From contig NZ_CP107796.1 of NCBI RefSeq assembly GCF_036345995.1, positions 434,001 to 498,000 on the forward strand: a DNA stretch of 64,000 nucleotides, given 5' to 3'. Shown one piece after another: positions 1 to 49,992 of the stretch. The notes below the pieces were generated by a model. That model did no database searches, was not told the origin of the DNA, and saw nothing but the letters and a program-made list of their open reading frames with translations. Source of the DNA: Streptomyces sp. NBC_00557. Lineage in GTDB: Bacteria; Actinomycetota; Actinomycetes; Streptomycetales; Streptomycetaceae. The position numbers and the translations under genes are program-made. Position 1 is the first letter of the stretch, and the number at the start of each line of letters is the position of its first letter.

Positions 1-9480
<9,480 letters not shown>

Positions 9481-25376: not shown

Positions 25377-28300
25377 TCACGACATCCCGAGTTCTTTGTC
25401 GATGAGGTCGAACAGCTCGTCCGCCGTCTCGACGGAGTCGAGTTCTCCGTCGTCGACGTCGGCGAGTGCCGCTCCGGACCGCCCGGAGCCGGTGCCGTTG
25501 TCGTGTCCGGCACCGCTGCCCTTCGTTGCCAGTTCCTGCCACTTCGCCGTCAGCCGCTGCAGCCGGGAAGTGATCGTCGCGTGGTCGTCGCCGCCGATCG
25601 TCGCGGCGGCGAACGCGGCCTCCAGCCGGTCGAGTTCGGCCAGCAGCGGTGCCGCGGTGGTCCCGGTGGCCGGGCCGTCCGCCTGCCGCGTGCCGGGCGT
25701 CTCCTCCGGCAGGGTGATCTGCTCCAGCAGATGACCGGCCAGCACCGTGGGTGTCGGGTGGTCGAACACCAGCGTGGCCGGGAGCCGCAGCCGGGTGGCC
25801 GCGGCCAGCCGGTTGCGCAGTTCCACCGCGGTGAGCGAGTCGAAGCCGAGTTCCTTGAACGCCTGGTCCGGTTCGATCTCGTCGGCCGAGGCGTGGCCGA
25901 GCGTGGCCGCCGCCTGCGCGCACACCAGGTCGACCAGGTACTGCTCCCGGTCGGCCGGGGCGAGCGCGGCCAGCCGGGCGCCGAGGTCCTGCGGCTCGGT
26001 GTGCGCGCCGGCCGCCGTGCCGGCCGCCTTCCGCGCGGGCGCGCGGACCAGGCCGCGCAGCAGCGGCGGTACGGCCTCGGCGTGGGCGCGCAGCGCCTTC
26101 AGGTCGAGGTCCACCGGCAGCAGCAGCGCCCGGTGGGCGGGGGCCGCCATGGTCGCCAGGCCCGCCTCGTCCAGCAGCCGCAGCCCCTGTTCGGCGCTGA
26201 GCGGCCGCATGCCGCCGCGTGCCATGCGCCGCAGATCGGCTTCGGACAGCTCGGCCGTCATGCCGGTGCCGGGCGCCCAGGCGCCCCACGCGAGGGAGAC
26301 GGCGGGCAGTCCGGCGGCGCGGCGGCCGGCGGCGAAGGCGTCGAGGAAGGCGTTCGCCGCCGCGTAGTTGGCCTGACCGGCGCTGCCGAACGTGCCGGCG
26401 ACGGACGAGAAGACGACGAACGCGGCCAGGTCCGCGTCACAGGTCAGCTCGTGCAGGTGGGCCACCGCGTCGGCCTTCGGCCGCAGGACCCGGGCCAGCC
26501 GGTCCGAGGTGAGCGCGGAGACCACGCCGTCGTCGACGACGCCCGCGGTGTGGACGACCGCCGTGAGGGGGTGCGCGGCGGGGACCGTGGCCAGCATGGC
26601 GGCCAGCTGGTCGCGGTCGGCCACGTCTACGGCGGCCACCTCGACCTGAGCGCCCCATTCGCCGAGCTGCGAGACGAGTTCGGCCGCGCCGGGCGCTTCG
26701 GCGCCGCGACGGCTGGCCAGCAGCAGGTGCCGTACGCCGTGCTCGGTGACCAGGTGCCGGGCGACCAGCGCGCCGAGACCACCGGTGCCGCCGGTCACCA
26801 GGACCGTGCCCTCCGGGTCGAGCGGGGCGGGCACGGTGAGGACGACCTTGCCGACATGGCGGGCCTGGGAGAGGTGACGGAAGGCGTCCGGGGCCCGGCG
26901 CACGTCCCAGCAGGTGACCGGGAGCGGCTTGAGCACACCCGCCTCGAACAGCTCGACGAGGTCCGCGAGCATCTGCCCGATCCGCTCCGGGCCGGCCTCC
27001 CACAGGTCGAACGCCCGGTACAGCACCCCGGCGTGCTCGCAGGCCACCGCCTCGGGGTCGCGGACGTCCGTCTTGCCCATCTCCAGGAAACGCCCACCAC
27101 GCGGCAGCAGCCGCAGCGAAGCGTCCACGAACTCACCGGCCAGCGAGTCGAGTACGACGTCCATGCCCTCACCGTCGGTGGCCGCGAGGAACGCCGCCTC
27201 GTACCCGGTGTCGCGGGACGACGCGATGTGCTCGTCGTCCAGACCGAGTTCCCGCAGGGTGCCCCACTTGCCGGCGCTCGCCGTACCGAACACCTCGGCG
27301 CCGAAGTGCCGGGCGAGTTGGGTGGCGGCCATGCCGACACCACCGGCCGCCGCATGCACGAGCACCCGCTCGCCGGCCTGCAGCGAGCCGAGGTCCGTGA
27401 GCGCGTAGTACGCCGTGAGGAACACGATCGGCACGGACGCCGCCTGCGCGAAGGACCACCCCGCCGGAATCCGGATCACCGTCCGGGCGTCCGCGACGGC
27501 GACCGGGCCGAACGAGCCCGGGAACATGCCCATCACGCGGTCGCCCACGGCCAGCCCGGTGACGCCCGGACCGACCTCCGTCACCACACCGGCGCCCTCC
27601 CCGCCGAGCAGCCCCGCCTCTCCGGGATACATGCCGAGCGCGTTGAGGACGTCACGGAAGTTGAGGCCCGCCGCACGCACGGCGATCCGCACCTGACCCT
27701 CCGTCAAATCGGCGGCGGCCTCGGGGAACGGAAGCAGGGCGAGGTTGTCCAGGGTGCCCTTCTCAGTGCTGTCGAGATGCCAGGCCGACTCGCCCGCCGG
27801 GACCGTGAGCCCGTCGTCCGCCGGGACCCGGCCCAGACGCGGGGCGTACAGGTCGCCGTCGCGCAGGGCGACTTCCGGCTCGCCGCAGGCGAGCGCGGCT
27901 GCGAGCGCGGTACGGGAGGCGTCGGTGCCGTCGGTGTCGACCAGCGCGAACCGGTCCGGCGCTTCGGCCCGTGCGGCCCGGACCAGGCCCCACACCGCGG
28001 CGAGCGCGGGGTCGGGCGCGCCGGCGTCGAGCGCGACGCCGCCTTCGGTGACCACGACCAGGCGGGAGCCCTCGAAGCGGTCGTCGTCGAGCCATGCGCG
28101 TACGGCGTCCAGGACGCGGCTGGTCACGGCACGGACCGCGTCCGGCACGCCGGCGGCTGCCCGCGCCACCGGCACGGGGAACAGCACCGTCGCCGGGACC
28201 TGGGCGGGCAGCTCCTCCAGCGCCGGGTGGACGGCCGCGCCGGGCAGGAGGTCCGCGTCACCGATCACCGCTGCCGCGACGGCCGTGGTCTCGGGCGCGG

Positions 28301-31300
28301 TGAGCCTGGTCCAGTCGACCTGGAAGAGGCTCTCGCGGTGGCCGTCGGACCCGGCGCGGGCGGCGAGGTCGCCGGAGACCTGGCGCAGCAGCAGCGACTC
28401 GACGGAGGCGACGTTGCCGCCCGCCGGGTCGGCCAGCTCCAGGGCGACGGCCTCCGGTCCGGCCTGCACCATGCGCACGCGCAGGGCCCGGGCGCCGGAC
28501 GCCCGCAGCGACACGCCGCTCCAGGAGAACGGCAGCCGTCCCCGTCCGGCTTCCGCCAGCGACACGAACATCATCGCGTGCAGGGCGGAGTCCAGCAGCG
28601 CCGGGTGGATGCCGAAGTCACCCGCGAGCCGCTCGTGCTCGTCGGGCAGGCCGACCTCGGCGAAGACCTCCTCGCCGCGCCGCCAGACGGCGCGCAGTCC
28701 GCGGAAGACCGGCCCGTAGGCGAATCCGGCCTCGGCGAAGCGGTCGTAGAAGTCGGCCACGGAGACGGGTTCGGCGTTCGGCGGAGGCCAGGCGGTCAGG
28801 TCGGCCGCCCCGGGGTCCGCGGGAGACGGGCCGGTGACGAGGGAACCGCTGGCGTTCAGGGTCCACGGGTCGGTGTCGAGGGCGTCCTCGGCCCGCGAGT
28901 AGATCTCCAGGGTGCGGGTGTCGGCGTCGTCCGGTGCGCCGACCCGGACCTGCACCAGTCGTCCGGTGCGCTCGGGCACGACCAGCGGGGCGGCGATCGT
29001 CAGCTCCTCCACCCGGTCGTAACCGAGCTGTCCGGCAGCGCACAGGGCGAGTTCGAGGAAGCCGGTGCCCGGGAACAGGACGGTGCCGGTGACGGCGTGG
29101 TCGCGCAGCCAGGGGTGCGTGCGCAGCGACAGCCGCCCGGTGAACAGCGCCTCCTCGCTGCCGGCCACCCGTACGGCGGCCCCGAGCAGCGGGTGTTCGG
29201 CCGAGCCGAGGCCCGCCGAGCCGAGGTCGCCGAGGGTGACGCCGGTGAGGTTGGGCCAGTAGCGGCGGCGCTGGAAGGCGTACGTCGGCAGCGGCACCGG
29301 CGCGGTCGCGGGAAGCCGCGCCGCCCAGTCCACACCGGCCCCGTCGACGTGCAGCCGCGCCAACGCCCCCACCAGAGTGTCGGCTTCGGAACGGTCCTTG
29401 CGCAGCACCGGTACGAGCACCGACGCCTCAGGCTCGTCCAGGCAGCCCTGCGCGAGCGCGGTGAGCGTGCCGTCGGGGCCCAGCTCCACGAACCGTCCCA
29501 CGCCCTGCTCCGCGAGCACCTGTACGGCGTCGGCGTAACGCACCGCCTGCCGCACATGCCGCACCCAGTAGTCCGGGGAGGTCAACTCCTCCACCGTGAC
29601 CGCCCCACCGGTCACGGTGGAGACGAACGACAGCTTCGGCCGCTCGTAGGCAAGGCTCTCCGCGACCTTGCGGAAGTCGGCGAGCATCGGCTCCATCAGC
29701 GGCGAGTGGAACGCGTGGCTCACGCGCAGGGCGGTGACCTTGCGGTCCTGCGCCCGGAAGTGCGCGGCCACCTGCTCCACGGCCTCTGCCGCGCCCGCGA
29801 CGACCACCGCGCGAGGGCCGTTGACGGCGGCGATGCCCACCCGCTCGTCGTCTTCGAGCAGCGGCAGCACCTCGTCCTCCGACGCCTGTACGGCGACCAT
29901 CGCGCCGCCCGCCGGGAGGGCCTGCATCAGCCGGCCCCGCGCCGCGACGAGACGGCAGGCGTCCGCCAGCGACCACACACCGGCCACGTGCGCGGCGGCG
30001 ATCTCACCGATCGAGTGACCCGCGAGGACGTCGGCCCGTACGCCCCACGACTCCAGCAGCCGGAACAGGGCCACCTCGAGAGCGAACAGCGCCGGCTGGG
30101 CGTATTCGGTGCGGTTCAGGGTCTCCTGGTCCTCGCCGAACACGATCTCCCGCAGCGGGCGCGGCAGTTCGGTGTCGAGGTGGGCACACGCCGCGTCGAA
30201 GGCGTCCGCGAACACCGGGTACGCCTCGTACAACTCCCTGCCCATCCCCAGGCGTTGGGAGCCCTGACCCGCGAAGAGGAACGCGGTGCGCACATCGCGC
30301 CGCGCCGAGCCCGTCACCGCGTTCACCGCCTCCTCACCGGAAGCGACCGCCTCCAGGGCCCGCACCAGATCCTCCCGGCCCGTACCCCACACCACGGCCC
30401 GGTGCTCGAACAGCGACCGCGACCGCACCAGCGACGACGCCACCCCGGCGACCGCCAGGTTCTCGTCTCCGGTGACGCATTCCGCGAGCCGCCCGGCCTG
30501 GTCCCGCAGCGCGGCAGCCGTACGACCCGACACCACCCACGGGATCAGGCCACCGGTGTCGCTCGTGACCTCCTCGGGCGCCTCCTCGGCCGGCGGCTCG
30601 GCCAGCACCACGTGCGCGTTGGTGCCGCTGAGCCCGAAGGAGGACACGCCCGCTCGGCGGGCCCGTCCGTCGGTGCGGGGCCACGCGACGTGGTCGCCGA
30701 GGAGTTCCACGGCGCCGGCGGACCAATCGACGTGGGAGGACGGCTGCTCGGCGTGCAGGGTGCGCGGCAGCATCCCGTGCTGCAGGGCCAGCACCATCTT
30801 GATGACGCCGGCGATACCGGCCGCGGCCTGCGTGTGGCCGATGTTCGACTTCACCGAACCCAGCCACACCGGCCGGTCACGGTCCTGCCCGTAGGTCGCG
30901 AGGATCGCCTGCGCCTCGATCGGGTCCCCCAGCGAGGTGCCGGTGCCGTGCGCCTCCACCGCGTCCACGTCAGCCGGCTTCAGTCCCGCCGACGCCAGGG
31001 CCTGCCGGATCACCCGCTGCTGCGACGGCCCGTTCGGCGCCGTGAGACCGTTGGACGCGCCGTCCTGGTTGACCGCGCTGCCGGCCACCACCGCGAGCAC
31101 CCGGCGACCGGCCGCACGGGCGTCCGACAACCGTTCCACCAGCACCAGACCCGCGCCCTCGGAGAACCCGGCACCGTCGGCCGCGTCCGAGAACGCCTTG
31201 CACCGGCCGTCGGAGGCCAGGCCCCGCTGACGGGAGAAGTCCAGGAACAGCCCCGGCGTCGACATCACCGTCACACCACCGGCCAGCGCCAGGTCGCACT

Positions 31301-34300
31301 CCCCCGCCCGCAGCGCCTGCACGGCGAGGTGCAGGGCGACCAGGGCGGCGGAGCAGGCGGTGTCGACGGTGACCGCGGGGCCCTCCAGGCCGAGCACGTA
31401 GGAGACGCGGCCGGAGACGATGCTCGCGGCGTTGCCGGTGCCGAGGTGGCCGCCGACGTCCTCGCCGGAGGCGACGAGGAGCGGAGTGTAGTCGTTGCCG
31501 TTGGTGCCGGCGAAGACGCCCGTGCGGGAGCCGCGCAGGGTTGTCGGGTCGATCCCGGCGCGTTCGAAGGCCTCCCACGCCAGTTCCAGCAGCAGCCGCT
31601 GCTGCGGGTCCATCGCGAGGGCCTCACGCGGTGAGACGCCGAAGAAGGCGGGGTCGAAGCCGGCCATGTCCCGCAGGAAGCCGCCTTCGCGGGCGGTGCA
31701 GGTGCCGGGGTGGTCGGGGTCGGGGTGGTAGAGGTTGTCGACGTCCCAGCCGCGGTCCGCCGGGAACGGGGCGATGGCGTCGGCGCCGTCGGCGAGCAGC
31801 CGCCAGAACTCCTCCGGGGAGTCGGCGCCGCCGGGGAAGCGGCAGCTCATCGCGGTGATGACGATCGGGTCGTCGCCGTTCGCCGCCGAGGCGGCGGGGC
31901 CCGCCGGGGCGGGCAGCCGGTCGTCGTCGCCCGTGGTGTCGCCGAGCTCGGCGAGCAGCATGCGGGCCAGTTCGGCGCAGTTGGGGTGGTCGAAGACCAG
32001 GGTGGCCGGCAGGCGAAGCCCGGTGATCCTGTTCATGCCGTTGCGGAGTTCGACGGCGCTCAGCGAGTCGAAGCCGAGGTCGCTGAAGGCGCGGGTCGGC
32101 TCGACGGCCTCCGGTCCGGGGTAGCCGAGGACGGTGGCGACGTAGCCGCGGACGACGTCGAGGACGGCGTCGGCGCGTTCGGCGCCGCTCAAGCCAGCCA
32201 GGTGGCGCACCAGCGCGGGGCCGTCGGCGGCGTCGGCGCCGAAGGCGTCCGCCGCGTTCTGCCCGGACGTTGTGCCGTGCGCGGGGGCGAGGGCGCGCTG
32301 GGCGTCGGGCAGGTCGCGCAGCAGGGCGCTGGGGCGGGAGCCGGTGAAGGCGGGCGCGAAGCGTTCCCAGCCGATGTCGGTGACCGCGAGGTAGGTCTCG
32401 TCGTGGTCGAGTGCCTGCTGCAGTGCCTGGCAGGCGAGTTCGGGCTGCATGTCGTAGACGCCGTAGCGGCGCAGGCGTTCGCCGACGGCGCCCTCGCCCA
32501 TGCCGCCGTCGGCCCAGTGGCCCCAGGCGACCGCGGTGGCGGGCAGGCCCTCGGCGCGGCGCCGGGCGGCGAGCGCGTCGAGGAAGGCGTTGCCGGGGGC
32601 GTAGTTGCCGAGGCCGGGGCCGCTGATGGTGCCGGACGTCGAGGAGAACAGCACGAACGCGGACAGGTCCATCCCTGCGGTGAGTTCGTGCAGGTGGACG
32701 GCGGCGGTGGCCTTGGTGCGCAGCACCGGGTCCATGCGGCCGGCGTCGAGGGCGTCGATGACGCCGTCGTCGAGGTGGCCGGCGACGTGCAGCACCGCGT
32801 CGAGCGGCTGGTCGTCGGGGATCGTGTCGAGCAGGTCGCGCAGCGCGTCCCGGTCGGTGACGTCGCAGGCGGCGATGGTGACGCGGCCGGCGCCGAGGGC
32901 GGTCAGCTCGTCGCGCAGCTCGGCGGCGCCGGGCGCGTCGGCGCCGCGGCGGCTGGTGAGCAGCAGGTGGTCGGCGCCGAGGGAGGCGAGCCAGCGGGAG
33001 ACGTGTCCGCCGACCGCGCCGGTGCCGCCGGTGACGAGGACGGTGCCGCGCGGGCGCCAGGGCTCGCCGGGCGGGGTGGCGCCGGCGAGCGGGGCGCGGT
33101 GCAGTCGTCGGCCGTAGGTGCCGGAGGCGCGTACGGCGGTCTGGTCCTCGCCGTCGGGGCGGGCGAGCAGCGCGCACAGCCGGTCGCCGGCGCGCCGGTC
33201 GAGGTCGGCGGGCAGGTCGATGAGGCCGCCCCAGCGGTCGGAGTGTTCGAGTGCGGCGACCCGGCCGAGGCCCCAGACGAGTGCCTGGGGTGCGCTGAGG
33301 ACGTGCTCCGCGCCGGTGACGGCGACGGCGCCGCGGGTGGCGCACCACAGGGGTGCGGCGATCCCGAGGTCGCCGAGCGCCTGGAGCAGGGCGAGGGTGC
33401 CGGCGAGGCCGGCGGGCACGGAGGGGTGGTCGCGGTGCGGGGTCTCGTCGAGCGCGAGCAGGGAGAGGATGCCGCCCAGGTCGTCCGCGGTGAGGGCGTG
33501 TTGGTCGCCGGTGCCGGTGAGGGCGTCGGTGAGCAGGGCGGCCAGGCCCGTGCGGTCGCTGCCGGGGGCGGCGCCGTCGACGGTGACGACGCGTACGGGC
33601 ACGCCGTGGCCGGTGAGGGCCTGTCGGGTGGCGTCGGCCAGCGGGTGACCGGCGGCGGGCACGGCGAGGAGCCAGGTGCCGGCCGGGGGTGCGCCCGCGG
33701 TGTCCTGGGTGAGCGGGGTCCAGCCGACGGTGTAGCGCCAGCCGTCGACGGTGGACTGCTCCCTGCTGCTGCGCCGCCAGGAGGACAGCGCGGGCAGCAC
33801 CTCGCGCAGCGGCGTGTCGCCGCCGAGGTCGAGGGTGGCGGTGAGGGCGTCGAGGTCCTCTTCCTCCACGGTCCGCCAGAAGCGGCTCTCGACCTCGTCG
33901 GAGACGTCGGCGCCGGGGCCGGCGGCGGTGTCGGCGAGGTCGTCGCGCAGTTCGGGCCAGAACCGCGTCCGCTGGAAGGCGTAGGTGGGCAGGTCGACGC
34001 GGCGGGCGCCGGTGCCGGCGAAGACGGTGTGCCAGTCGACGTGCACGCCGTGCGCGTGGGCCTCGGCGAGGGAGGTCAGGAACCTCTCGTGGCCGCCCTG
34101 GTCGCGGCGCAGGGTGCCGAGGACGACGGCGTCGGCGGCGGCGTCCTCGATGGTCTCGCGCAGCCCGAACGCGACGACGGGGTGCGGGGAGACCTCGATG
34201 AAGGTGCGGTGGCCGGCCGCGAGGAGGCCGCGCACGGCGTCCTCGAAGCGGACGGTCTCGCGCAGGTTGGTGTACCAGTAGGCGGCGTCGAGGACGGTGT

Positions 34301-37300
34301 CGTCGTCGAGCCAGTCGCCGGTCACCGAGGAGCGGAAGGGGATCTCGGCGGGGCGGGGCTCCAGCCCGGTGAGCGCGTCGAGGACGGGGCCGCGCAGGGG
34401 TTCGACGTGCGCGGAGTGGCTGCCGTAGTCGACGGCGACCTTGCGGGCCTGGACGCCTTCGCCGGTCAGTTCGGCGAACAGCTCGTCCAGGGCGTCGGCG
34501 GCGCCGGAGACGACGACCGAGCCGGGGCCGTTGACGGCGGCCACGGCGAGCCGGTCGCCGAAGCGCTCCAGCCGCGGGCGCACCTGGCCGGCGGGGAGCG
34601 GCACGGACATCATGCCGCCGTCGCCGGCGATCGCGGTGATGGCCTTGCTGCGCAGGGCGGCCACGCGGGCGCCGTCCTGCAGGGACAGCGCGCCGGCGAC
34701 GACGGCCGCGGCGATCTCGCCCTGGCTGTGTCCGACGACCGCGGCGGGTTCGACGCCGTGCGCGCGCCACAGGTGGGCGAGGGAGACCATGACGGCCCAC
34801 AGGACGGGCTGGACGACGTCCACCCGGTCCAGGTCGGGCGCGTCCGGCCCGCCGCGCAGGGCGGCGGTCAGCGACCAGTCCACCCATGGCGCGAGGGCTT
34901 CCTCGCACTCGGCGATGCGGCGGGCGAACTCCGGTGCGGTGTCGAGGAGTTCGCGGCCCATGCCGGGCCACTGGGCGCCCTGGCCGGGGAAGACGAGGAC
35001 GGGTCCGGTGCCGCGCCGGTCGGTGCCGCGGACGACGTCGCTGACCATGCGGTCCTCGGCGAGGTCGCGCAGGCCGCGCTCGAGGCCGTCGAGGTCGGCG
35101 GCGAGGACGACGGCGCGGTGCTCGAACGCGGTGCGGGTGGTGGCGAGGGACAGCCCGAGGTCGGCGAGGTGGGCGCCGGGGTGCTCGCGCAGGTGGGCGA
35201 GGAGCCGGCCGGCCTGGGCGCGCAGCCCGTCGGGGGTGCGGGCGGACAGCGGCGCGGGGACGAGGGGCAGCGCGGCGGCGGTGTGGTCGCCGCCGGTCTC
35301 CCGGGCGGTGTCCTCGGCCGGCGCGTCGGGGGCCTGCTGGAGGATGACGTGCGCGTTGGTGCCGCTCATGCCGAACGAGGAGACGCCGGCCCGGCGCGGG
35401 CGGCCCGTCTCGGGCCACGGCACGGCCTCCTCCAGCAGCCGTACGGTGCCCGCTGACCAGTCGACCTCGCGGGTCGGTGTCTCGGCGTGCAGCGTGGCCG
35501 GGAGGACGCCGTGGCGCAGGGCCATGACCATCTTGATGACGCCGCCGACACCGGCCGCCGCCTGCGCGTGGCCGATGTTCGACTTCAGGGAGCCGAGCCA
35601 CAGCGGCCGGTCCGCGGGCCGGTCCTGGCCGTAGACGGCGATCAGGGCCTGCGCCTCGATGGGGTCGCCGAGGGTGGTGCCGGTGCCGTGCGCTTCGACG
35701 GCGTCGACGTCGGCCGGGGTGAGGCCGCCCGCGGCCAGGGCTGCGCGGATGACGCGCTGCTGGGAGGGGCCGTTGGGCGCGGTGAGGCCGTTGGAGGCGC
35801 CGTCCTGGTTGAGGGCGCTGCCCTGGACGACGGCGAGGACCGGGTGGCCGTGGCGGCGTGCGTCGGACAGCCGTTCGAGGACGACCATGCCGGCGCCCTC
35901 GGCCCAGCTGGCGCCGTCGGCGTCCGCGGAGAACGGCTTGCAGCGGCCGTCCTCGGCGAGCGCGCGCTGCCGGCTGAACTCGATGAGCGAGCCCGGCGTC
36001 GACATCACGGTGACACCGCCCGCGAGCGCCAGGTCGCACTCGCCCTGGCGCAGGGACTGCACGGCGAGGTGCAGGGCGACGAGGGAGGAGGAGCAGGCGG
36101 TGTCGACGGAGAGCGCCGGGCCCTCGAGGCCGAGGGCGTAGGCGATGCGGCCGGACAGGACGCTCGGCGAGTTGCCGGTGCCGATGTAGCCCTCGAAGCT
36201 GTCCTTCGCGGCGCCGAGGATGCCGACGTAGTCCTGGTAGGTGACACCGGCGAAGACACCGGTGAGGCTGCCGCGCCGGGACGCCGGGTCGATGCCGGCC
36301 CGCTCCAGCGCCTCCCAGGACGTCTCCAGCAGCAGCCGCTGCTGCGGGTCCATCGCGAGGGCCTCGCGCGGGGAGATGCCGAAGAAGCCGGGGTCGAAGT
36401 GGCTCGCGTTGTGCAGGAAGCCGCCTTCGCGGGCGTAGCAGGTGCCCGGGTTGTCGGGGTCCGGGTGGTACAGCTTCGCCAGGTCCCAGCCGCGGTCGGT
36501 GGGGAACGGCGAGATGCCGTCGCCCCGGTTGGCCACCAGCTCCCACAGCTCCTCCGGGCTGGTGATGCCGCCCGGGTAGCGGCAGGCCATGCCGACCACG
36601 ACGATCGGGTCGTCGTCGAGGCGGGCGCGGGCCGTGACGGGCGCCGCCGAATCCGTTGCCGCGCCGAAGAGTTCGGTGTCGAGGTGCGCGGCGAGCGCGA
36701 GCGGGGTGGGGTGGTCGAAGACGAGGGTGGCGGGCAGCAGGACGCCGAGGTCGGCGCTGAGCCGGTTGCGCAGTTCGACGGCGGTGAGGGAGGCGAACCC
36801 GAGGTCCTTGAAGACCCGGCCGGGCTCCACCTCGTCGACGTCGGCGTAGTTCAGGACGGCGGCCGCGGTGCGGCGGACGAGGTCCAGCAGGACGCGCTGC
36901 CGTTCGGCCGGGGAGCGGCCGTCGAGCCGGTCCACGAGCCCCCCGCCCTGAGCCGCGTCGCCGGAGTCGTCGGCGGCGCGGCGGCGCCGCGCACGGGCGG
37001 GAGCGGGCGCCGAGTCCGTACGGGTCTGGGCGGGCGCCGAGTCCGGACGGTGGGCGCTGTCCGCCGGGGCCTGCTCGGCGGCGACGGGGCGCAGCCGCAG
37101 GGAGTCGACGGTGAGGACGGGCCGGCCGGAGGTGTCGGCGGCGAGCAGGGTGAGCGTGTTCTCGCCGGTCCGGGTGAGCCGCACGCGCAGGGTGCCGGCG
37201 CCGTCGGCGTGGAGGGTGGCGCGCTGCCACGCGAACAGCAGCAGCCCGTCGTCGAGTCCGGCGGGCACGCCGAGCCCGAGGGGCTGCAGGGCCGCGTCGA

Positions 37301-40300
37301 GCAGTGCCGGATGCAGGCCGAACCGCCGTGCGGCGTCCCGCTCCCCGTCGGGCAGGGCGACCTCGGCGTACACGTCGTCGCCGTGCCGCCATACGGCGCT
37401 CAGCGCACGGAACGCCGGACCGTACACCGGGCCGGCGCCGGCGGCGAGACGGTCGTACAGGCCGCCGACGTCGACGGGTTCGGCACCTGCCGGGGGCCAG
37501 TCGGCGAGCGGCGTCCGGGGCGGAACGGCGGTGGTGTCGGCGGGCGCGAGCAGCCCCTCGGCGTGGCGGGTCCACACGGTCTCGTCGTACGGCGTGCCGT
37601 CGGCGCCGGAGTAGACGGCGACGGGCCGGGTGCCGCGCGCGTCGGGTTCGCCGACGCGGACCTGGAGGCGGACCGCGCCGCGTTCGGGCACGGTCAGCGG
37701 CGTCTGCAGGGTGAGGTCGCGGACCTCGTCGCAGCCGACGTGGTCGCCCGCCTGGACGGCGAGTTCGAGGAAGGCGGTGCTGGGCACGACGGCGTGGCCG
37801 CCGAGCCGGTGGTCCGCCAGCCACGGCTGGGAGCGCAGCGACAGCCGTCCGGTGAGGACGACCGTGTCGCTGTCCGCGGCCCGCACCGCGGCGGCGAGCA
37901 GCGGGTGGCCGGTGGCGTCGAGCCCCAGCGCCGAGGCGTCACCGGAACCGGCGGGGACCTCGAGCCAGTAGCGGCGGCGCTGGAAGGCGTAGGTGGGCAG
38001 CGCGGTCCGCGGCGCCCGGGCCAGGACGGGCAGGACGCTCGTCCAGTCGACGTCCGCACCACGCGTGAACAGCGCGGAGACGGCCTCCAGCAGGGCGCGA
38101 GGCTCGGGACGGTCGTCGCGCAGCGCGGGCACGTGCAGGGCGTCCGCCAGGGCCGGGCAGGACGCGGCCAGGGTGGTCAGGGTGGAGTCGGGGCCGAGTT
38201 CCAGGCAGCGGGTGACGTGCTGGGCGCCGAGCGCGCTCACGCCGTCGGCGAAGCGCACCGCGTCCCGGACGTGCCGCACCCAGTACTCGGGGGAGGTCAG
38301 CTCCTCGGCGGTGGCGGGCTCCCCGGTGACGTCGGAGACGACGGGGATGCGGGGCGCGGCGTAGGAGAGGGTCTCGGCGACGGCACGGAAGTCGGCGAGG
38401 ACCGGTTCCATCAGCGGGGAGTGGAAGGCGTGGCTGACGCGCAGCCGCCGGGTGCGCCGGCCGAGCGCCTCGACGGCGGCGGTGATCTCCCGCACCGCGT
38501 CCTCGGTGCCGGACACCACGAGGGACAGCGGCCCGTTGACGGCGGCGATGCCGGCCTCGGCCTCGCGGCCGGCGAGCAGCGGCAGCACCTCCTCCTCCGA
38601 CGCCTGCAGCGACACCATCGCCCCGCCCTCGGGAAGGGCCTGCATCAGCCGGCCACGCGCCGCGACGAGCCGGCAGGCGTCCGACAGCGACCACACCCCG
38701 GCCACGTGCGCGGCGGCCAGCTCGCCGATCGAGTGCCCGAGCAGCACGTCCGGACGCACACCCCACGACTCCAGCAGCCGGAACAACGCCACTTCCAGCG
38801 CGAACAGCGCGGGCTGCGCGAACTCGGTCCGGTTCAGGGCCTCCTGGTCGTCACCGAACGCGATCTCCCGCAGTGGGCACGGCAGTTCGGGGTCCAGGTG
38901 AGCGCAGGCCGCGTCGAAGGCGTCGGCGAAGGCCGGGTAGGTGTCGTACAACTCGCGTCCCATGCCGATGCGTTGCGAGCCCTGACCCGCGAACAGGAAC
39001 GCGGTGCGGCCGTCGGTGAGCGCCGAGCCGACGACGGCGCCGGCCGCCGCCTCGTCCTGGGCGACCGCGCGCAGTCCGCGCAGCAGTTCGTCGCGGTCGG
39101 CGCCGAGGACGACGGCTCGGTGTTCGAACACCGAGCGGGTGCGGACGAGGGACGCGGCGACCTCGATCCCGGCGGCACCGGGGCGCGCCTCGACGAAGCC
39201 GGCCAGCCGCTCGGCCTGGGCGCGCAGCGCGGCACGGGTGCGGCCGGACACGAGCCAGGGCAGCAGGGGCGGCTCGGGGGTGAGAGCGGGGGACTCGTCG
39301 TCCGCGCCGGCCGGGGCGGGTTCCGGCTGCTCCAGGATCACGTGGGCGTTGGTGCCGGACACGCCGAACGCGGACACACCGGCGCGGCGGGGACGGCCCT
39401 CGAGCTGCGGCCAGGCGGTGTTCTCCGTCAACAGGGCGACGTCACCGGCCGACCAGTCGACGTGCGAGGAGGGCTCGTCGACGTGCAGAGTGCGCGGCAG
39501 CACGCCGTGCCGCATGGCGAGCACCATCTTGATGACACCGGCGACACCGGCGGCGGCCTGGGTGTGCCCGATGTTCGACTTCAACGAGCCCAGGTACAGA
39601 GGGTGTTCGCGGTCCTGGCCGTACGTGGCGAGGAGGGCCTGCGCCTCGATCGGGTCGCCGAGCGTCGTACCCGTGCCGTGGGCCTCCACCGCGTCCACGT
39701 CGGCCGGGGTCAGCCCGGCCGACGCCAGGGCGGCACGGATGACGCGCTGCTGGGCGGGCCCGTTGGGCGCGGTGAGGCCGTTGGACGCGCCGTCCTGGTT
39801 GACGGCCGAACCGGCGATCACCGCGAGCACGTCGTGCCCGTTGCGGCGGGCGTCGGAGAGCCGTTCGACGACGAGGACGCCGACGCCCTCAGCCCAGCCG
39901 GTGCCGTCGGCGTCGTCGGAGAACGCCTTGCACCGGCCGTCCGCCGCCAGTCCGCCCTGGGCGCTGAACTCGACGAACGCGCCCGGGTCGGCGAGCACGG
40001 TGACGCCGCCCACCAGGGCGAGGTCGCACTCGCCGGACCGCAGGGACTGCGCGGCCAGGTGCAGCGCGACGAGGGAGGAGGAGCAGGCGGTGTCGACGGT
40101 GACGGCCGGCCCCTCGAAGCCGAAGGTGTAGGCGACACGTCCGGAGACCACGCTGCCGGCGACGCCGGTCAGCAGCTGTCCGTCGAGTCCCTCGGGCACT
40201 TCGCGCAGTCCGGCGCCGTAGCCGGAGCTGCCGGCGCCGACGAACACGCCGGTACGGCTGCCGTGCAGCGAGTCCGGCCGGATCGCAGCGTGCTCCAGCG

Positions 40301-43300
40301 CCTCCCAGGACGCCTCCAGCAGCAGCCGCTGCTGCGGGTCGACGGCGAGGGCCTCGCGGGGCGAGATGCCGAAGAAGCCGGGGTCGAACTGCGCGGCGTC
40401 GGCGAGGAAACCGCCGGCGCGGGTGTGACTGCGGCCCCGGCGGGCACCGTCGCCGTCGCTTCCACCGTCGGTCGAGCCGTGGAGCGCGTCGAGGTCCCAG
40501 CCGCGGTCGGTGGGGAACTCCGAGATCGCGTCCGTCCCTTCGACGACCAGACGCCACAGGTCGTCCGGGCCGGTCACGCCGCCGGGCAGGCGGCATGCCA
40601 TGCCGACGACGACCACCGGGTCGTCCGTGGTCGAGGTGACCGGGACGGGCAGTCGTCCGGCGTCCTGCGTGCCGTGGTCGTCGGCGAACAGCTCTTGGTG
40701 CAGCAGGCGGGCCAGTGCGGCCGGCGTGGGGTGGTCGAAGACGAGGGTGCTGGGCAGCTTCAGACCGGTCTCGGCGGAGAGCCGGTTGCGCAGCTCGACT
40801 GCGGTCAGGGAGTCGAAGCCGAGGTCGCGGAAGGACCGGGTGGCCTCCACCGCGCCGACCCCGGTGTGCCCGAGTACGGCGGCGGCACCGCCGCGCACCA
40901 ACTCCAGCAGCTCACGCTCGCGTTCGGCGCCCGACAGACCGGCGAGCCGGTCGCGCAGGCCCGCACCGGCCGTGTCGCCGGAACCGGTGCCCGCGATCTC
41001 GATGGTGGCCGCCTGGGCTTCGGGTAGGCCGGTCAGCAGGGCGCTGGGACGCACGCTGGTGTAGGCGGGGGTGAACCGGGCCCAGTCCACGTCCGCGACG
41101 ACCACGACCGGCTCCGCGCCGGTGACCGCCCGGGCCAGGGCGTGGACCGCCCGCCGGGGTTCGAGTGCCATCAGTCCCCGGCGACGCAGCGCCGCCGTGG
41201 CCTCGGCGCCGGCCGCCATGCCGCCGTCGGCCCACGGCCCCCACGCCACCGACGTACCGACCAGCCCACGTGCACGACGTGCTTCGATCAGGCCGTCGAG
41301 GAAGGCGTTGGCCGCCGCGTAACCGGCCTGACCGCCACTGCCCCACACCCCGGCGATGGAGGAGAACACCACGAACGCGTCCAGCGCCCGCTCCCCCAGC
41401 ACCGCATCCAGATGCACGGCACCGGCCACCTTGCCCGCCCACACCTCGGCAAGCTCCTCGCCCGACATCTCCTCCAACGGCACGTTCACCACCGCACCGG
41501 CCGCATGCACGACCGCATCCACCGGATGCTCGGCGAGAAGAGCCTCCACCGCTTGACGGTCGGCCACATCACAGGCGGCGACCGTCACCCGCACGCCGGT
41601 GGCCGCCAGCTCGTCCCGCAGCTCGGCCGCGCCAGGCGCGTCGAGGCCGCGGCGGCTGACGAGCAGCAGGTGCTCGGCACCGTTCCCGGCCGCCCACCGG
41701 GCCACACGGGCGCCCAACGCGCCCGTACCACCGGTGATCAGCACCGTGCCCCGCGGCCGCCACACCGCCGCGTCCGCCCCGGTAGCGGGCACCCGCTCCA
41801 GCCGCCGCCCGAACACCCCCGACGCCCGCACCGCAACCTGATCCTCATCACCCGCACCGGCCAGCACGGAGGCGAGACGGCCGGCCGTACGGCTGTCGAT
41901 CACCGCGGGCAGGTCGATCAGGCCGCCCCAGCGGCCGGACGCCTCCAGCGCGGCCACGCGGCCGAGGCCCCAGACGGCGGCCTGGAGGGCATCCCCGGTG
42001 CCGTCGGACCGGCCGACCGACACCGCGCCTCGGGTGACGGCCCAGAGAGGTGCGGTCACGCCCGCGTCACCGAGAGCCTGGACGAGCTCGAGGGTGGCGG
42101 AGACGGCCGACGGGACCGCGTCGCTCGGGGCTTCGTCGGCGAGGGCGAGCAGGGAGACCACGCCCGCGACGGGCCGGACGGTTTCGAGACGCGCGGCCAG
42201 TTCGGCGCGGCCGGTCTCGTGGGTCAGCCGCTCCACCTCGGCGCCACGCGCGGTGAGCACGTCGATCACCGACCGCGCCCAGGCGTCGTCGACGTGCGCG
42301 GCCGGCTCCACCACCAGCCAGCGCCCGGAGAGGGCTGCGGAGGCGGGAACGTCCGCGAGGGGCCGCCAGCCGACGTGGTAGCGCAGGGCGTCCACATCGG
42401 CCTGTTCGCGCGTCCGGCGGCGCCAGGAGGTCAGGGCGGGCAGCACCGTGCCCACGACGTCCTGGTCCAGGTCCAACTCCCCGGCCAGCGACTCCAGGTC
42501 CTCCCGCTCGACCGCCTCCCAGAACCGGGCGTCGATCTCACCGCCCGTTCCGACGGCGGCCTTCGGCTGCGCGGGAGCCGGCCAGTACGTCTCGTGCTGG
42601 AAGGCGTACGTCGGCAGCTCCACCGGCTCCACGGCCGGGAACATTCGCGACCAGTCGGCCTCGGCGCCACGAGTGAACGCGGAGGCCACGGCGGACACGA
42701 CGGACACGGCTTCCGGACGGTCCTTGCGCAGTACCGGGACGAACAGCTTTCCGTCCCCGTCCGCCACACAGTCCTGACCGAGCGCCGTGAGGGTGCCGTC
42801 CGGACCGAGTTCCAGGAAGCGCACGGTGGCGTGCTCGTCGGCGAGGGTGCGGACGGCGTCGGCGTAGCGGACGGTGCGGCGGACGTGGTCCACCCAGTAC
42901 TCGGGGGAGGTGATCTCCTCGTCGCTCGCTGAGACACCGGTCACCGTGGACACGATGGGGAACTTGGGACGGTCGTACGACAGGCTCCGCGCGACCTTGC
43001 GGAACTCGGCGAGCATCGGCTCCATGAGCGGCGAGTGGAAGGCGTGGCTCACACGGAGAGCGGTGACCTTGCGGCCCTCGGCACGGAAGCGCGAGGCGAT
43101 CTCCTCCACGGCCTCTGCGGCTCCCGAAATCACCACCGCCTGCGGCCCGTTGACCGCAGCGATGCCCACCTGCTCACCGAGCAGGGGCAGCACCTCGTCC
43201 TCCGAGGCCTGCACCGCCGCCATCGCGCCACCGGCCGGCAGCGCCTGCATCAGCCGGCCGCGTGCCGCCACCAGACGGCACGCGTCCGCCAGCGACCACA

Positions 43301-46300
43301 CGCCAGCCACGTGCGCGGCGGCGATCTCACCGATGGAGTGACCCGCCAGCACGTCCGGTCGTACGCCCCAGGACTCCAGCAGCCGGAACAAGGCGACTTC
43401 CAGGGCGAACAGCGCCGGCTGGGCGTACTCGGTGCGATTCAGCGCGTCGGCGTCCTCACCGAAGACGAGCTCCCGCAGGGGACGCGGCAGTTCGGTGTCG
43501 AGGTGAGCGCATACGGCGTCGAAGGCGTCCGCGAACACGGGGTACTCGTCGTACAGCTCCCGGCCCATGCCCAGGCGTTGGGATCCCTGACCGGCGAACA
43601 GGAAAGCCGTACGACCGCCCTCACCGACGTTACCGACCATCGCACCGGCACCGGCCGGCTCACCGGCGGCGACGGACCGCAGGCCGCTGACCAGCTCGTC
43701 CCGGCCTGCGCCCCAGACCACGGCCCGGTGCTCGAACACCGACCGCGAGCGCACCAGCGCAGCACCCACCTCGACCGGTGACACCCCGGCCCGCTCGGTG
43801 ACGAACTCCGCCAGCCGCCCGGCCTGCGCCCGCAGCGCCTCACGGCTCCGCCCGGACACCACCCACGGCACCAACGACGGCACCGGGCCGCCCTCGACCC
43901 CGGCCCGAGGCTCCTGCTCGACCGGCTGCTCGAGGACGACATGGGCGTTGGTGCCACTCACGCCGAAGGCCGAGACGGCGGCGCGGCGCGGTCGGTCACC
44001 GTCGAGCGACCATTCCCGCTCCTCGGTGAGGAGTTCGACGGCTCCGGCGGACCAGTCGACGTGCGAGGACGGTTCCTCCACATGCAGCGTGCGCGGCAGC
44101 ACCCCATGCTGCATCGCCAGCACCATCTTCATGACACCCGCGACACCGGCAGCGGCCTGCGTGTGCCCGATGTTCGACTTCACCGAGCCCAGATACAGCG
44201 GGCGTTCGCGGTCCTGGCCGTAAGTGGCCAGCAGCGCCTGCGCCTCGATGGGGTCGCCGAGGGCGGTGCCGGTGCCGTGCGCCTCCACGGCGTCCACATC
44301 CGACGGCTTCAGTCCGGCGCTCGCGAGGGCCGCCCGGATCACCCGCTGCTGAGAGGGGCCGTTGGGTGCGGTGAGACCGTTGGAGGCGCCGTCCTGGTTG
44401 ACCGCGCTGCCCCGGACCACCGCCAGCACCCGGTGCCCGTTGCGGCGCGCGTCGGAGAGCCGCTCCACGACGAGGACGCCGACGCCCTCGCCCCAGCCCG
44501 TGCCGTCCGCGCCCTCCGCGAACGCCTTGCACCGCCCGTCCACCGCAAGCCCCCGCTGACGCGAGAACTCCACGAACGCGCCCGGCGTCGACATCACCGT
44601 CACACCACCGGCCAACGCCAGATCGCACTCACCGTTGCGCAGCGCCTGCACCGCCAGATGCAGCGCGACCAGCGACGACGAGCAGGCCGTGTCCACCGTC
44701 ACCGCCGGCCCCTCGAGCCCCAGCACGTACGACACCCGGCCCGACAGCACCGACGCCGCGTTCCCCGTGCCCACATGACCCTCGAAGTCCTCACCCGAGG
44801 CCAGCAGCACACCCGTGTAGTCCTGACCGTTCGTACCGGCGAAGACACCCGTACGACTGCCCCGCAGCCCCCCCGGAGCGATACCCGCCCGCTCCAACGC
44901 CTCCCACGACGTCTCCAGCAGGAGCCGCTGCTGCGGATCCGCCGCCAGCGCCTCCCGCGGACTCATCCCGAAGAACCCGGCATCGAAACGACCCGCACCG
45001 TCCAGGAAGGCGCCGACGTCGACCATGGTGGTTCCGGGTCGGGTGCCCTCCGGGTCGTACAGGGCGGACAGGTCCCAGCCGCGGTCGGCCGGGAAGGGAC
45101 CCACCGCGTCACCGCCCTCCGACAGCAGCCGCCACAACCCCTCCGGATCGCTCACCCGACCCGGGAAACGGCACGCCATCCCCACGATCACCACCGGATC
45201 GTCCGACACCGGCACGGCCACCGTGGACGACGGCTCCGCCTCTGCCAGCTCACCCAGCAGCTGCTCACGCAGATACCGCGCCAGCGCCACCGGCGTCGGA
45301 TAGTCGAACACCACGGTCGCGGCGAGACCGGAGACGCCCGTGAGGGTGACGAGGGTGTTGCGCAGCTCGACGGCGGTCAGGGAGTCGACGCCCAGGTCGC
45401 GGAAGGCACGCTCGGCGGTGACGGACTCGGGGTTCGGGTAGCCGAGGACGCCGGCGGCACAGGACTGGACGGTCTCCAGCAGGACGCGGTCCTGTTCGGC
45501 GGAGGTGAGTCCGGTCAGCCTGCCGAGGAGACCGGCGCGGTCGCCGGGCCCGGTGCGCTCAGCGGCGGCGGCGCCCGCGCCCTCGACGGCGGCCCGTGCC
45601 TCCGGCAGAGAGGCGATGAGCGGGCTGGGGCGTGTCGCGGTGAAGGCAGGGGCGAAGTCGGCCCAGTCGAGGTCGGCGACGACGACGGAGGGCGCAGGGC
45701 GGGCGACCGCGCGGGCGAGGACGTCCAGGGCGGCGGTGCCGGTGAGCGGGAGGACTCCGCCGCGCCGCATGCGGGCGACGGAGGCGCTGTCGTCGGCCAT
45801 GCCGCCGTCGGCCCACGGGCCCCACGCGATGGAAGTGGCGGTCAGTCCGGCCGCGCGGCGGCGCTCGGCGAGCGTGTCGAGGAAGGCGTTCGCCGCAGCG
45901 TAATTGCCCTGCCCGGCCGCGCCAATGCTGCCGGCGAAGGAGGAGAAGAGGACGAAGGCGTCCAGCTCACGGTCGCGGGTCAGCTCGTCCAGGTGCAGCG
46001 CACCGAGCGCCTTGGTCCGCAGGACGCCCGCGAACCGCTCCGGGGACAATGCGTCGATCACACCGTCGTCCAGGACACCCGCCGTGTGCACCACGGCATC
46101 CACCGGGTGCTCGGCAAGGACGTTCTCCACGGTGGCACGGTCCGCCACGTCACCCGCGATCACGCTCACCCGCGCACCGGCAGCCCGGAGTTCGTCCCGC
46201 AGATCGGCCGCGCCCGGCGCGTCGATGCCACGCCGGCTGACCAGCACCAGATGCTCGGCACCCTGCTCGGCGGCCCAGCGGGCCACCCGCGCGCCCAGCG

Positions 46301-49300
46301 CACCCGTCCCGCCGGTGACGAGGACCGTCCCGCGCGGCTGCCACGCGGTGGTGCCACCAGCCGAGGTGACGCGTTCGAGGCGGCGGCCGAACGCCCCGGA
46401 CGGGCGCACGGCGACCTGGTCCTCGTCGGCGGCGCCGCCGGCCAGCACGGAGACGAGCCGCTGTGCGGCGCGCCGGTCGAGGGTGTCGGGCAGGTCGATC
46501 AGACCGCCCCACCGGTCCGGGTACTCCAGCGCCGCCACCCGGCCCAGACCCCACACCGCACCCTGCACCGGATCCGGCGCACCGTCCGAACGGCCCACCG
46601 ACACCGCACCCCGCGTCACCACCCACACCCGGCCACCCACACCGGCGTCCCCGCACGCCTGCAGCAGCGCGGCGACGGTTCCGCAGACCTGGGCGGCGTC
46701 GGCGTCGGTCGTGGGCGTGACGAGGACGACGCCCGAGACGCCGTCGGCGGCCAGGTTCGTCAACTCGGCGGTGAGCGCGGTGCGTTCCGGGGTGGCGGGG
46801 AGTTCGAGAACCGTGGCTTCGGCTCCGCGCGTGGTGAGGGCCGTCCGCAGGGTGGCGGTGCGGTCGTCGCCGGTCGTTCCTTCGGGGACCAGGAGGAGCC
46901 ACCGGCCGGAGAGCGGGGTGTCGGAGGACGGGTCGAGCGGTTGCCAGTGCGGGCGGTACAGCCACCCGTCGGCGCGTGCGCGCTCCTGGCGGCGGCGCCG
47001 CCACGACGACAGGGCGGGGACGACTCCGTCCAGGGACTCCGGGGTGAGGCCGAGCGAGGCGGCGAGGGTGCCGAGGTCACCACGCTCCACGGCGTCCCAG
47101 AACTCGGCGTCGGCGCTGCCGGCGGCCGTTCGTGTGCCGTGCGTGTCGCTGCCGGTGGCGGGACGGCTGTGGTCCGCGAGCCAGTAGCGGCGGTGCCGGA
47201 AGGCGTAGGTGGGCAGGTCGACCCGCTGTCCGCCGGGCACGACGGCCGCCCAGTCGACGGGGGCGCCGTGGGTGTGGAGGCGGGCCAGCGCCGTGACGAC
47301 GGAGGCGGGCTCGTCGCGGTCCTTGCGCAGGGTCGCCGTGAACAGGGTCGCGTCACCGCCGCCCGTCTGCGTCGCGGCCTCGGGGGTGTTCTGGGCGAGC
47401 GCGGTGAGGGTGCCGTCGGGGCCCAGCTCCAGGTAGCGGGTGACGCTGCGGGCGGCGAGGGCGCGTACGGCGTCCGCGAAGCGGACGCTCTCGCGGACGT
47501 GGCGCACCCAGTACTCGGGCGAGCGCAGCTCCGCTGCGGTGGCGGTGGCGCCGGTGACGGTGGAGACGACCGGGAGGACGGGTTCCGCGTAGTCGAGGCT
47601 CTCGGCGACGGCCCGGAACTCGGCCAGCATCGGTTCCATCAGCGGCGAGTGGAAGGCGTGACTCACGCGCAGGGCGGTCGTCTTGCGACCTTGGTCGCGG
47701 AAGTGCGCGGCGATGCGCTTCACAACGTCCGCCGCTCCCGAGACGACCACGGCCTGCGGGCCGTTGACCGCTGCGATGCCCACCTGCTCATCCAGCAGCG
47801 GCAGCACCTCGTCCTCGGCAGCCTGAAGGGAGATCATGGCGCCGCCTTCGGGCAGCGCCTGCATGAGCCGGCCGCGCGCGGCGACCAGGCGGGTGGCATC
47901 AGCCAGCGACCACACCCCGGCCACGTGCGCGGCGGCGATCTCACCGATGGAGTGACCGGCGAGCACGTCCGGCCGTACGCCCCAGGACTCCAGCAGCCGG
48001 AACAGGGCCACTTCGAGGGCGAACAGGGCCGGCTGGGCGTACTCGGTGCGGTTGAGCAGCTCCGCGTCCTCGCCGAACACGATCTCGCGCAGACTGAACG
48101 GCAGTTCGGCGTCCACCGCGTCGAAGGCGGCGGCGAACACGGGGTACGTGTCGTACAACTCCTTGCCCATGCCGAGCCGTTGGGAGCCCTGCCCGGCGAA
48201 CAGGAAGGCCGTACGGCCGTCGGGCTGGGCGGTGCCGGTGACGATCCCGTCGGCGGGCTCCCCGTCGGCGAGGGCAGTGAGCCCTGCCACGAGATCGGCT
48301 TTTCCGGTGCCGATGACGGCGGCGCGGTACGGCAGCGCGGAACGGTGGGCGGCGAGCGACCAGGCGAGGTCGAGCGGGTTGATGTCGGGACGTTCCCGCA
48401 GGCGGGCGAGGAGACGGGTGGCCTGGGCGGGCAGGGCGTCCGGGGTGCGGGCGGACAGCACCCACGGCAGTACGCGCTCACCGGCGGGCGTCGTGGCAGC
48501 CTCACGGCCCTCGTCGGACCGGGTGCCCTCGGGGCCTTCCTCGCGTGGCGCTTCCTCCAGGACGGCATGGGCGTTGGTTCCGCTCACACCGAAGGCGGAC
48601 ACGGCGGCGCGGCGCGGCCGGCCGTCGTACGACGGCCACTCCCGGGCCTCGGTGAGGAGTTCCACCGCACCGGCCGACCAGTCCACGTGCGAGGACGGCT
48701 CCTCCACATGCAACGTGCGCGGCAGCACCCCGTGCTGCAACGCCAGCACCATCTTGATCACACCCGCCACACCGGCGGCGGCCTGCGTGTGCCCGATGTT
48801 CGACTTCACCGACCCCAGCCACAACGGCCGTTCACGGTTCTGCCCATACGTCGCGATGAGCGCCTGCGCCTCGATGGGGTCGCCGAGAGTGGTGCCGGTA
48901 CCGTGCGCCTCCACCGCGTCCACGTCGGCGGGAGTGAGCCCGGCCCCGGCGAGCGCCTGCCGGATCACCCGCTGCTGCGACGGACCATTGGGCGCCGTAA
49001 GACCGTTGGAAGCGCCGTCCTGATTGACCGCGCTGCCCCGGACCACCGCCAGCACCCGATGCCCATGACGGCGCGCATCCGACAGCCGCTCCACCAGCAG
49101 CATGCCCACGCCCTCGGACCAGCCGGTACCGTCCGCGCCCTCCGCGAACGCCTTGCACCGACCATCCGCCGCAAGCCCCCGCTGCCGCGAGAACTCCACA
49201 AAGACGCCCGGCGTCGACATCACGGTCACACCGCCGGCCAGCGCCAGATCGCACTCACCGTTGCGCAGCGCCTGCACCGCCAGATGCAACGCCACCAGCG

Positions 49301-49925: not shown

Positions 49926-49992
49926 TGGAACTTGCCCCATACGTTGTTGGCGGTAGGAACGGTTCGGCCTGCTGCGGCTGCGACGCCGGCGT
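49926..49992 (-). other. 67-nt spacer between PKS A and PKS B
   Basis: This holds no gene. On the coding strand a GGGG run lies about 9 nt before the chosen ATG of PKS B and is the only plausible ribosome-binding sequence. A second in-frame ATG lies 15 nt upstream (49940) with no purine-rich sequence before it. I see no terminator hairpin or promoter-like element, consistent with read-through from A into B. Confidence 0.6.

What the first reader, a model, noticed from the sequence alone, without database searches (positions are those of the whole stretch)
36618..40625. Module with a dehydratase but no ketoreductase
B3 reads KS-AT-DH-ACP. The DH keeps HxxxGxxxxP and DxxxQ, so it looks catalytically plausible, yet no KR lies in the module to make its beta-hydroxy substrate. 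Options are a ketone left in the product with a vestigial DH, a KR acting from a neighbouring module or in trans, or a DH recruited for other chemistry such as cyclisation (pyran-forming DHs of the AmbDH3 type are known). The ketone option fits a hemiketal built with the B1 hydroxyl.
Basis: partly seen in the sequence, partly recalled or inferred. Interest (0 to 1): 0.72.

Follow-up and report, generated by a model that had tools for sequence, protein, structure and literature searches.

The report
Ketone-leaving PKS module with silent dehydratase
One step of a giant bacterial antibiotic assembly line keeps a dehydration domain but has lost the domain that would feed it, a layout already published for related compounds, and most likely just leaves a ketone that closes into a ring.

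Summary
B3 is KS-AT-DH-ACP with 49 residues between DH and ACP and no KR detected. It is not an artefact: nine contigs of other actinobacteria (eight titled Streptomyces) carry the same module before the same neighbour. The architecture is already published. Genes P1, P2, P3, A, B, C and D match the PM100117/118 synthase in order and module split, with the same methylmalonyl positions. B3 is its module 13, whose KR-less DH the 2016 paper noted and judged unlikely to act. Notonesomycin has a 'redundant' DH at the equivalent module 12, on a carbon of its hemiketal ring.

What I add: in 21 loci whose DHs group together, the DH keeps His, Asp, Tyr, Phe and Arg (21 of 21 each) while the Pro of LPFxW is Leu in 19. 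The ACP has lost the Asp of DSL (A/T/S in 19 of 19 distinct sequences, against 1 non-Asp in 268 KR-module ACPs). dN/dS could not tell a used from an unused DH. A DH that itself makes the hemiketal is not excluded.

The parts
39348..40622 (-). B3 (module 13) ketosynthase, DTACSS and HGTGT intact
38103..38999 (-). B3 acyltransferase, malonyl-type HAFH
37077..37925 (-). B3 dehydratase: His 37809-37811, Tyr of YGP 37422-37424, Asp 37296-37298, Phe 37233-37235, Arg 37089-37091; AF2 model pLDDT 88.9, best solved match the rifamycin terminal-module DH 4ln9
36930..37076 (-). 49-residue DH-ACP linker; KR and its structural subdomain absent
36702..36929 (-). B3 acyl carrier protein; GFASL (Ala codon 36792-36794, phosphopantetheine Ser 36789-36791) where GFDSL is usual
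41211..41756 (-). B2 (module 12) KR, sets the C19 hydroxyl inside the proposed ring
   Evidence: carbon numbering by the published register, inferred
45795..46337 (-). B1 (module 11) KR, sets the C21 hydroxyl proposed to close onto the C17 ketone
   Evidence: carbon numbering by the published register, inferred
31980..36611 (-). B4 (module 14) KS-AT(methylmalonyl-type)-KR-ACP, conserved downstream neighbour
25377..50213 (-). gene B, modules 11-15, counterpart of GonP5 (ORF start as called mechanically; the true start is probably further in)

Best explanation
B3 is module 13 of a PM100117/118-type assembly line (KSQ loading domain, 20 extension modules, a thioesterase-like end of gene D). It adds a malonate unit and, having no KR, hands on a beta-ketoacyl chain with the ketone at C17. 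The DH has no beta-hydroxy substrate and does no dehydration. The C21 hydroxyl made by B1 adds to the C17 ketone, spontaneously or in the finished macrolide, giving a six-membered hemiketal that contains the C19 hydroxyl made by B2. The DH is inherited from a DH-KR ancestor that probably lost its KR once, before this macrolide family diversified. Shown: the architecture, its conservation, the grouping of the DHs, the match in gene order and module split to the published line. Inferred: the ketone, the hemiketal, the silence of the DH, the single loss.
For: KR absent by Pfam and by sensitive profile. Gene order, module split and methylmalonyl-type AT positions (loading, M1-4, M14, M19) equal those of PM100117/118, whose authors judged the M13 DH unlikely to act for lack of a KR. 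The notonesomycin module-12 DH is called redundant, and by the register 2(N-n)+3 (N modules, module n) its carbon is C15, beside C16-C18 of the reported hemiketal ring; that register reproduces the C31 and C25 that the PM100117 paper gives for M6 and M9. M13-like DHs group together in a midpoint-rooted tree: 21 of 21 under a node holding 22 leaves (support 0.60), 19 of them in a pure clade with support 0.95. In all 19 distinct M13-like ACPs the Asp that modelling pairs with an Arg of both DH and KR is gone, which fits an ACP no longer docked for reduction or dehydration. In demurilactone the hemiketal-carbon module 8 has a DH whose catalytic His is Tyr (passages), so such a ring needs no working DH there.
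Against: His, Asp, Tyr, Phe and Arg of the DH are kept in 21 of 21 sequences that are on average 61% identical. The M6 DH of the same clusters, redundant by the published homologue's product, lost Tyr, Phe and Arg in 9 of 9 (read from the alignment). So the M13 DH is less decayed than a silent domain need be. No product of this strain was seen. That PM100117 has its hemiketal at C17 is recalled: the word is absent from the paper text (0 hits).
Confidence: 0.68

Rival explanations
1. The DH makes the hemiketal. On the ACP-bound beta-ketoacyl chain its His takes the proton of the C21 hydroxyl and its Asp protonates the C17 carbonyl oxygen, so the pyran closes directly on the ketone, an AmbDH3-like cyclisation without a preceding dehydration.
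For: Catalytic and surface residues kept in 21 of 21 relatives while LPFxW and the ACP motif changed in the same group. The model fits solved DHs, the ambruticin dehydratase-cyclase 5o16 among them (44-45% identity in the Foldseek alignment). The irumamycin paper speculates that a DH may mediate hemiketal formation (passages).
Against: Six-membered hemiketals form readily without enzymes (general chemistry). Loss of the ACP Asp argues against closer DH-ACP docking. In demurilactone the hemiketal-carbon module 8 has a KR and a DH with Tyr for the catalytic His (passages). In 5 of 21 the Pro of HxxxGxxxxP is Ala. On re-reading for the demurilactone DH I lowered this from 0.17.
Confidence: 0.15
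2. The DH is kept only as a structural part (dimer contacts, spacing between AT and ACP); its active-site residues persist because they also hold the double hot-dog fold together.
For: dN/dS 0.36 (0.30-0.44), well below 1 though above KS13 (0.14) and AT13 (0.23).
Against: Modules with neither KR nor DH exist, so a DH is not strictly needed. The conserved Tyr, Phe and Arg are at the substrate and ACP side by published modelling. DH7, in a fully reducing module and presumably active, has dN/dS 0.44, so the rate does not decide.
Confidence: 0.12
3. A KR from a neighbouring module reduces the B3 ketone and the DH then dehydrates it.
For: Supply of a missing activity by a neighbouring module is suggested for azalomycin module 2 (passage). 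The DH motifs look competent.
Against: Published relatives keep this carbon at ketone level. The ACP has lost the Asp modelled to dock the KR.
Confidence: 0.03

Closest known systems
PM100117/118 synthase module 13 (GonP5, Streptomyces caniferus)
   Same: Position 13 of 20, KR-less with a DH, in a five-module protein, M14 methylmalonyl, same seven PKS genes in the same module split
   Different: There the M6 DH has Arg for His and M9 has DH and ER; here the M6 DH keeps His but lost Tyr, Phe and Arg, and A2 (M9) has only a KR, so gene A is shorter (4714 against 5234 aa). Sequences not compared directly: I did not have its record
Notonesomycin module 12 (Nbc40)
   Same: Redundant DH, on a carbon that the register puts in the six-membered hemiketal ring; two PKS genes apart from the other six
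   Different: 18 modules, 32-membered ring; whether its module also lacks the KR is not stated in the passages I saw
Guanidino-polyol macrolides (azalomycin F, niphimycin class)
   Same: Six-membered hemiketal in the lactone ring; the review mentions etherification of a C17 hydroxyl (passages)
   Different: Guanidyl side chain; I did not identify any fetched locus as one of these clusters
AmbDH3 (ambruticin dehydratase-cyclase)
   Same: Fold, 44-45% identity in the structural alignment, catalytic His and Asp kept here
   Different: AmbDH3 dehydrates a beta-hydroxy thioester and then cyclises; B3 has no KR to make that substrate

Membership tests
PM100117/118-type macrolide PKS | KSQ loading domain plus modules split 2/3/2/3/5/3/2 over seven genes | tested here: met
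PM100117/118-type macrolide PKS | Methylmalonyl ATs at loading, M1-4, M14, M19 only | tested here: met
   by motif (YASH, and YGSH with GHSQG in M14)
PM100117/118-type macrolide PKS | Module 13 with DH and no KR | tested here: met
PM100117/118-type macrolide PKS | M9 with DH and ER; M6 DH with Arg for catalytic His | tested here: not met
   A2 is KS-AT-KR-ACP and the M6 DH keeps His. I take these as traits of that one cluster, at odds with its own product, not as defining; if they were, this line would be a sister type
PM100117/118-type macrolide PKS | Naphthoquinone (futalosine) genes and deoxysugar genes | tested here: inconclusive
   one glucose-1-phosphate thymidylyltransferase over its cut-off among 20 flanking proteins scanned with NCBIfam (only to E 1e-60); no full survey
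PM100117/118-type macrolide PKS | 36-membered macrolactone product | not testable with these tools
   no product data for this strain
Active PKS dehydratase | HxxxGxxxxP, DxxxQ/H, YGPxF | tested here: met
Active PKS dehydratase | LPFxW | tested here: not met
   LLFAW here; Pro to Leu in 19 of 21 relatives
Active PKS dehydratase | A beta-hydroxyacyl substrate made in the module | tested here: not met
   no KR
AmbDH3-type dehydratase-cyclase | Acts on a beta-hydroxy thioester | tested here: not met
   no KR to make one; definition from passages of PMC4979870
Pyran synthase (PS) domain | Catalytic Asp replaced by His or Asn | tested here: not met
   Asp kept in 21 of 21; definition from passages

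The most novel reading that the evidence does not exclude
Module-13 DHs of this macrolide family are a distinct clade of hemiketal-forming cyclases: they kept the His/Asp dyad but work on a beta-ketone instead of a beta-hydroxyl, paired with an ACP whose DSL Asp was discarded (A/T/S) so that no KR can dock and reduce the ketone. The ACP residue would then be a one-letter genomic marker for this hemiketal module.
Probability: 0.13. Interest if true: 0.7.

Novelty: new member of a known kind. Interest (0 to 1): 0.36.

Why it matters
The module itself is a further case of a published oddity. Of use are two sequence correlates over 21 loci: a DH that keeps its dyad and surface residues without a KR, and an ACP that lost the Asp found in 267 of 268 KR-module ACPs examined. 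They may let the hemiketal carbon of such macrolides be read from sequence, and they make a simple test possible of whether a carrier-protein docking residue decides if a ketone is reduced.

Tried and rejected
KR hidden in the linker: rejected. Assembly gap: rejected, same layout in nine other contigs. B4 KR dead: my first motif missed it, but YAPGN keeps Tyr and Asn. dN/dS as proof of silence: the first comparison with DH15 (0.15) looked decisive, then DH7 gave 0.44, so I call it inconclusive. His/Asp retention alone as proof of function: weakened, since the M6 DH also keeps His in 9 of 9 and Asp in 8 of 9. 'The ACP Asp is lost whenever the KR is lost': rejected as a rule, since 18 of 23 other KR-less ACPs keep it (loading modules are among the 23). 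Two motif counts were wrong because the pattern hit the wrong place in the ACP; replace them. In two azalomycin papers the terms I searched gave nothing on this module (passages).

L016 is missing from the nine-genome dN/dS because its M6 and M7 were not found; the near-identical L017 stands in. The M13-like list was drawn up with the ACP motifs in view: L013-L022 and L090-L100, and L120, L128 and L140. The check that does not use ACPs is the DH-only tree, which groups all 21 and leaves the other 11 KR-less DHs out. In the 40 regions picked without looking at ACPs, 4 KR-less DH modules turned up: 3 with Ser (these three) and 1 with Asp (L142, outside the group).
Full report
What is there. The window is C1:434001-498000 of a 9.0 Mb genome. 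Its minus strand carries genes A (start just outside), B, C and D (end outside) of a giant type I PKS. I fetched 180 kb of flanks and annotated the PKS domains. Upstream lie P1, P2 and P3, with P450-like, ABC-transporter-like and other genes between P2 and P3. P1 opens with a KSQ-AT-ACP loading domain, and D ends in a thioesterase-like region with GSSSG, seen by motif only. The line has a loading domain and 20 extension modules, split 2/3/2/3/5/3/2.

The module. B3 is KS-AT-DH-ACP (coordinates under parts). The DH-ACP linker has 49 residues. No KR is seen by Pfam or by a locus-built KR profile with filters off (15 bits and up). KS and AT look active, the AT of malonyl type. The DH keeps HxxxGxxxxP, DxxxQ and YGPxF; LPFxW reads LLFAW. 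The ACP reads GFASL. The AlphaFold2 model (12 sequences, pLDDT 88.9) is an ordinary DH fold, best matching the rifamycin DH 4ln9 (TM 0.90), with the ambruticin dehydratase-cyclase 5o16 and the erythromycin DH 3el6 among the first eleven rows.

It is known. PM100117/118 (PMC4763440; abstract, section 8 whole, passages) has the same seven-gene split and the same methylmalonyl positions, and its authors say the M13 DH in GonP5 is unlikely to act because the module has no KR. Protein sizes mostly agree (GonP5 8461 aa, B 8278; GonP6 5238, C 5248; GonP7 3641, D 3645); GonP4 (5234) is longer than A (4714), its M9 having an extra DH and ER. With 20 modules the beta-carbon of module n is C(2(20-n)+3). 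This reproduces that paper's C31 for M6 and C25 for M9, puts B3 at C17, B2 at C19 and B1 at C21, and so gives a six-membered ring between C17 and the C21 oxygen. In notonesomycin (PMC7081687, passages) module 12 of 18 has a redundant DH; the same rule puts it at C15, next to C16-C18 of the reported hemiketal ring. A review (PMC6864768, passages) gives a six-membered hemiketal for all guanidino-polyol macrolides and mentions a C17 hydroxyl. That PM100117 itself has a C17 hemiketal is my recollection; the word is not in the paper text.

It is conserved. Of 45 loci from the search for related loci, 9 (L013-L021; eight titled Streptomyces, one 'Actinobacteria bacterium OK074') show the whole KS-AT-DH-ACP module followed by KS-AT-KR-ACP, and L022 is cut by its contig end. 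In a sample of 199 genomes of the genus, the own one included, I fetched 18 places in 16 other genomes where the match ran through DH and ACP; 18 of 18 have DH directly followed by ACP, two of them (L088, L089) being L020 and L018 again. The match list was truncated and about 9 candidates per genome were scored, so this is a lower bound. Not all belong to the hemiketal type: L094-L096, L099 and L101-L105 have other DHs.

One group. A FastTree of 201 DHs, midpoint-rooted, puts the 21 M13-like DHs under one node with one other leaf, by its position the M20 DH of this cluster (support 0.60); 19 form a pure clade at 0.95. None of the other 11 KR-less DHs falls inside. So the KR was probably lost once. 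The M13-like DHs are 44-99% identical (mean 61%); 61 of 283 columns are invariant. His, Asp, Tyr of YGP, Phe of LPF and Arg of LxLR are each 21 of 21; Pro of HxxxGxxxxP is 16 of 21 (Ala in L093, L097, L120, L128, L140); Pro of LPF is Leu in 19 of 21. As a contrast, the M6 DH (window plus eight of the nine other genomes) keeps His 9 of 9 and Asp 8 of 9 but has His for Tyr in 9 of 9 and has lost Phe and Arg in 9 of 9 (read from the alignment). That M6 is redundant is taken from the PM100117 product; it is not known for this strain.

The ACP. Over 310 distinct ACPs in the loci analysed, the residue before the phosphopantetheine Ser is Asp in 267 of 268 behind a KR, in 9 of 12 behind an AT, in 9 of 11 behind other KR-less DHs, and in 0 of 19 M13-like ones (10 Ala, 5 Thr, 4 Ser). 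The single KR-module exception is the degenerate module G2 of the neighbouring PKS. Fisher's test gives p 9e-29 against KR modules and 1e-7 against other KR-less ones, but the sequences are related and count as few events; the ACP tree does not show them as one clade. Forty regions picked without regard to ACPs gave Asp in 126 of 126 KR modules, 4 of 4 KS-AT-ACP modules and 1 of 4 KR-less DH modules; the other 3 have Ser and fall in the M13-like DH clade. Modelling work (PMC3422181, passages) pairs this Asp with Arg275 of the erythromycin DH and with an Arg of KR. I found no paper on loss of this Asp in KR-less modules; the searches were made, in a partial library.

Selection. dN/dS over nine genomes: KS13 0.14, AT13 0.23, DH13 0.36 (0.30-0.44), DH6 0.42, DH7 0.44; in the five genomes with DH15: DH15 0.15, DH13 0.39, DH7 0.40, DH6 0.42. 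DH13 is constrained, but DH7, in a fully reducing module, evolves as fast, so rates do not say whether DH13 is used.

Reading. The simplest account is a ketone left at C17, closed by the C21 hydroxyl, with a DH that lacks a substrate. In demurilactone (PMC9673147, passages) the hemiketal carbon belongs to module 8, which has an intact-looking KR and a DH with Tyr for the catalytic His, so that ring forms without a working DH. Retention of the DH residues here, and the changes of ACP and LPF motifs in the same group, leave room for a DH that closes the hemiketal itself; I put that at 0.13-0.15. A KR in trans is unlikely. A pyran synthase is excluded by the retained Asp, and strict AmbDH3 chemistry by the missing KR (definitions from PMC4979870 passages).

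Noticed in passing
window 40722-46677 and 50275-56233: A 6.0 kb stretch (B1-B2 against A2-A3, KR region of the first to ACP of the second) is 87.9% identical between the two PKS genes; the B2 and A3 KR segments printed are identical, so the copies are recent or homogenised.
   Followed up: partly
G000:C1:375117-424730, downstream of the window: A second PKS (E-F-G) with its own KSQ loading module; its last module G2 is degenerate (truncated AT, DH and KR motifs lost, GLNSL ACP) and only 14 residues follow its ACP, so no thioesterase there.
   Followed up: partly
window 6884-7777 (D1, module 19 AT): Methylmalonyl-type YASH motif, as in PM100117 M19 and, by homology prediction, notonesomycin M17, where the products lack the expected methyl.
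   Followed up: no
window 1202-2077 (D2, module 20 DH): [10 protein letters not shown]: Gly of HxxxGxxxxP is Glu in the last DH, and this DH is the only outsider beside the M13-like group in the tree.
   Followed up: no
G000:C1:534522-549662 (P2, first KS): Active-site motif DTMCSS instead of DTACSS.
   Followed up: no
L026 15452-15679: A KS-AT-ACP module, with neither KR nor DH, whose ACP also reads GFASL; its product is unknown to me.
   Followed up: no
G000:C2:81689-146610: Further PKS DHs on the second contig.
   Followed up: no
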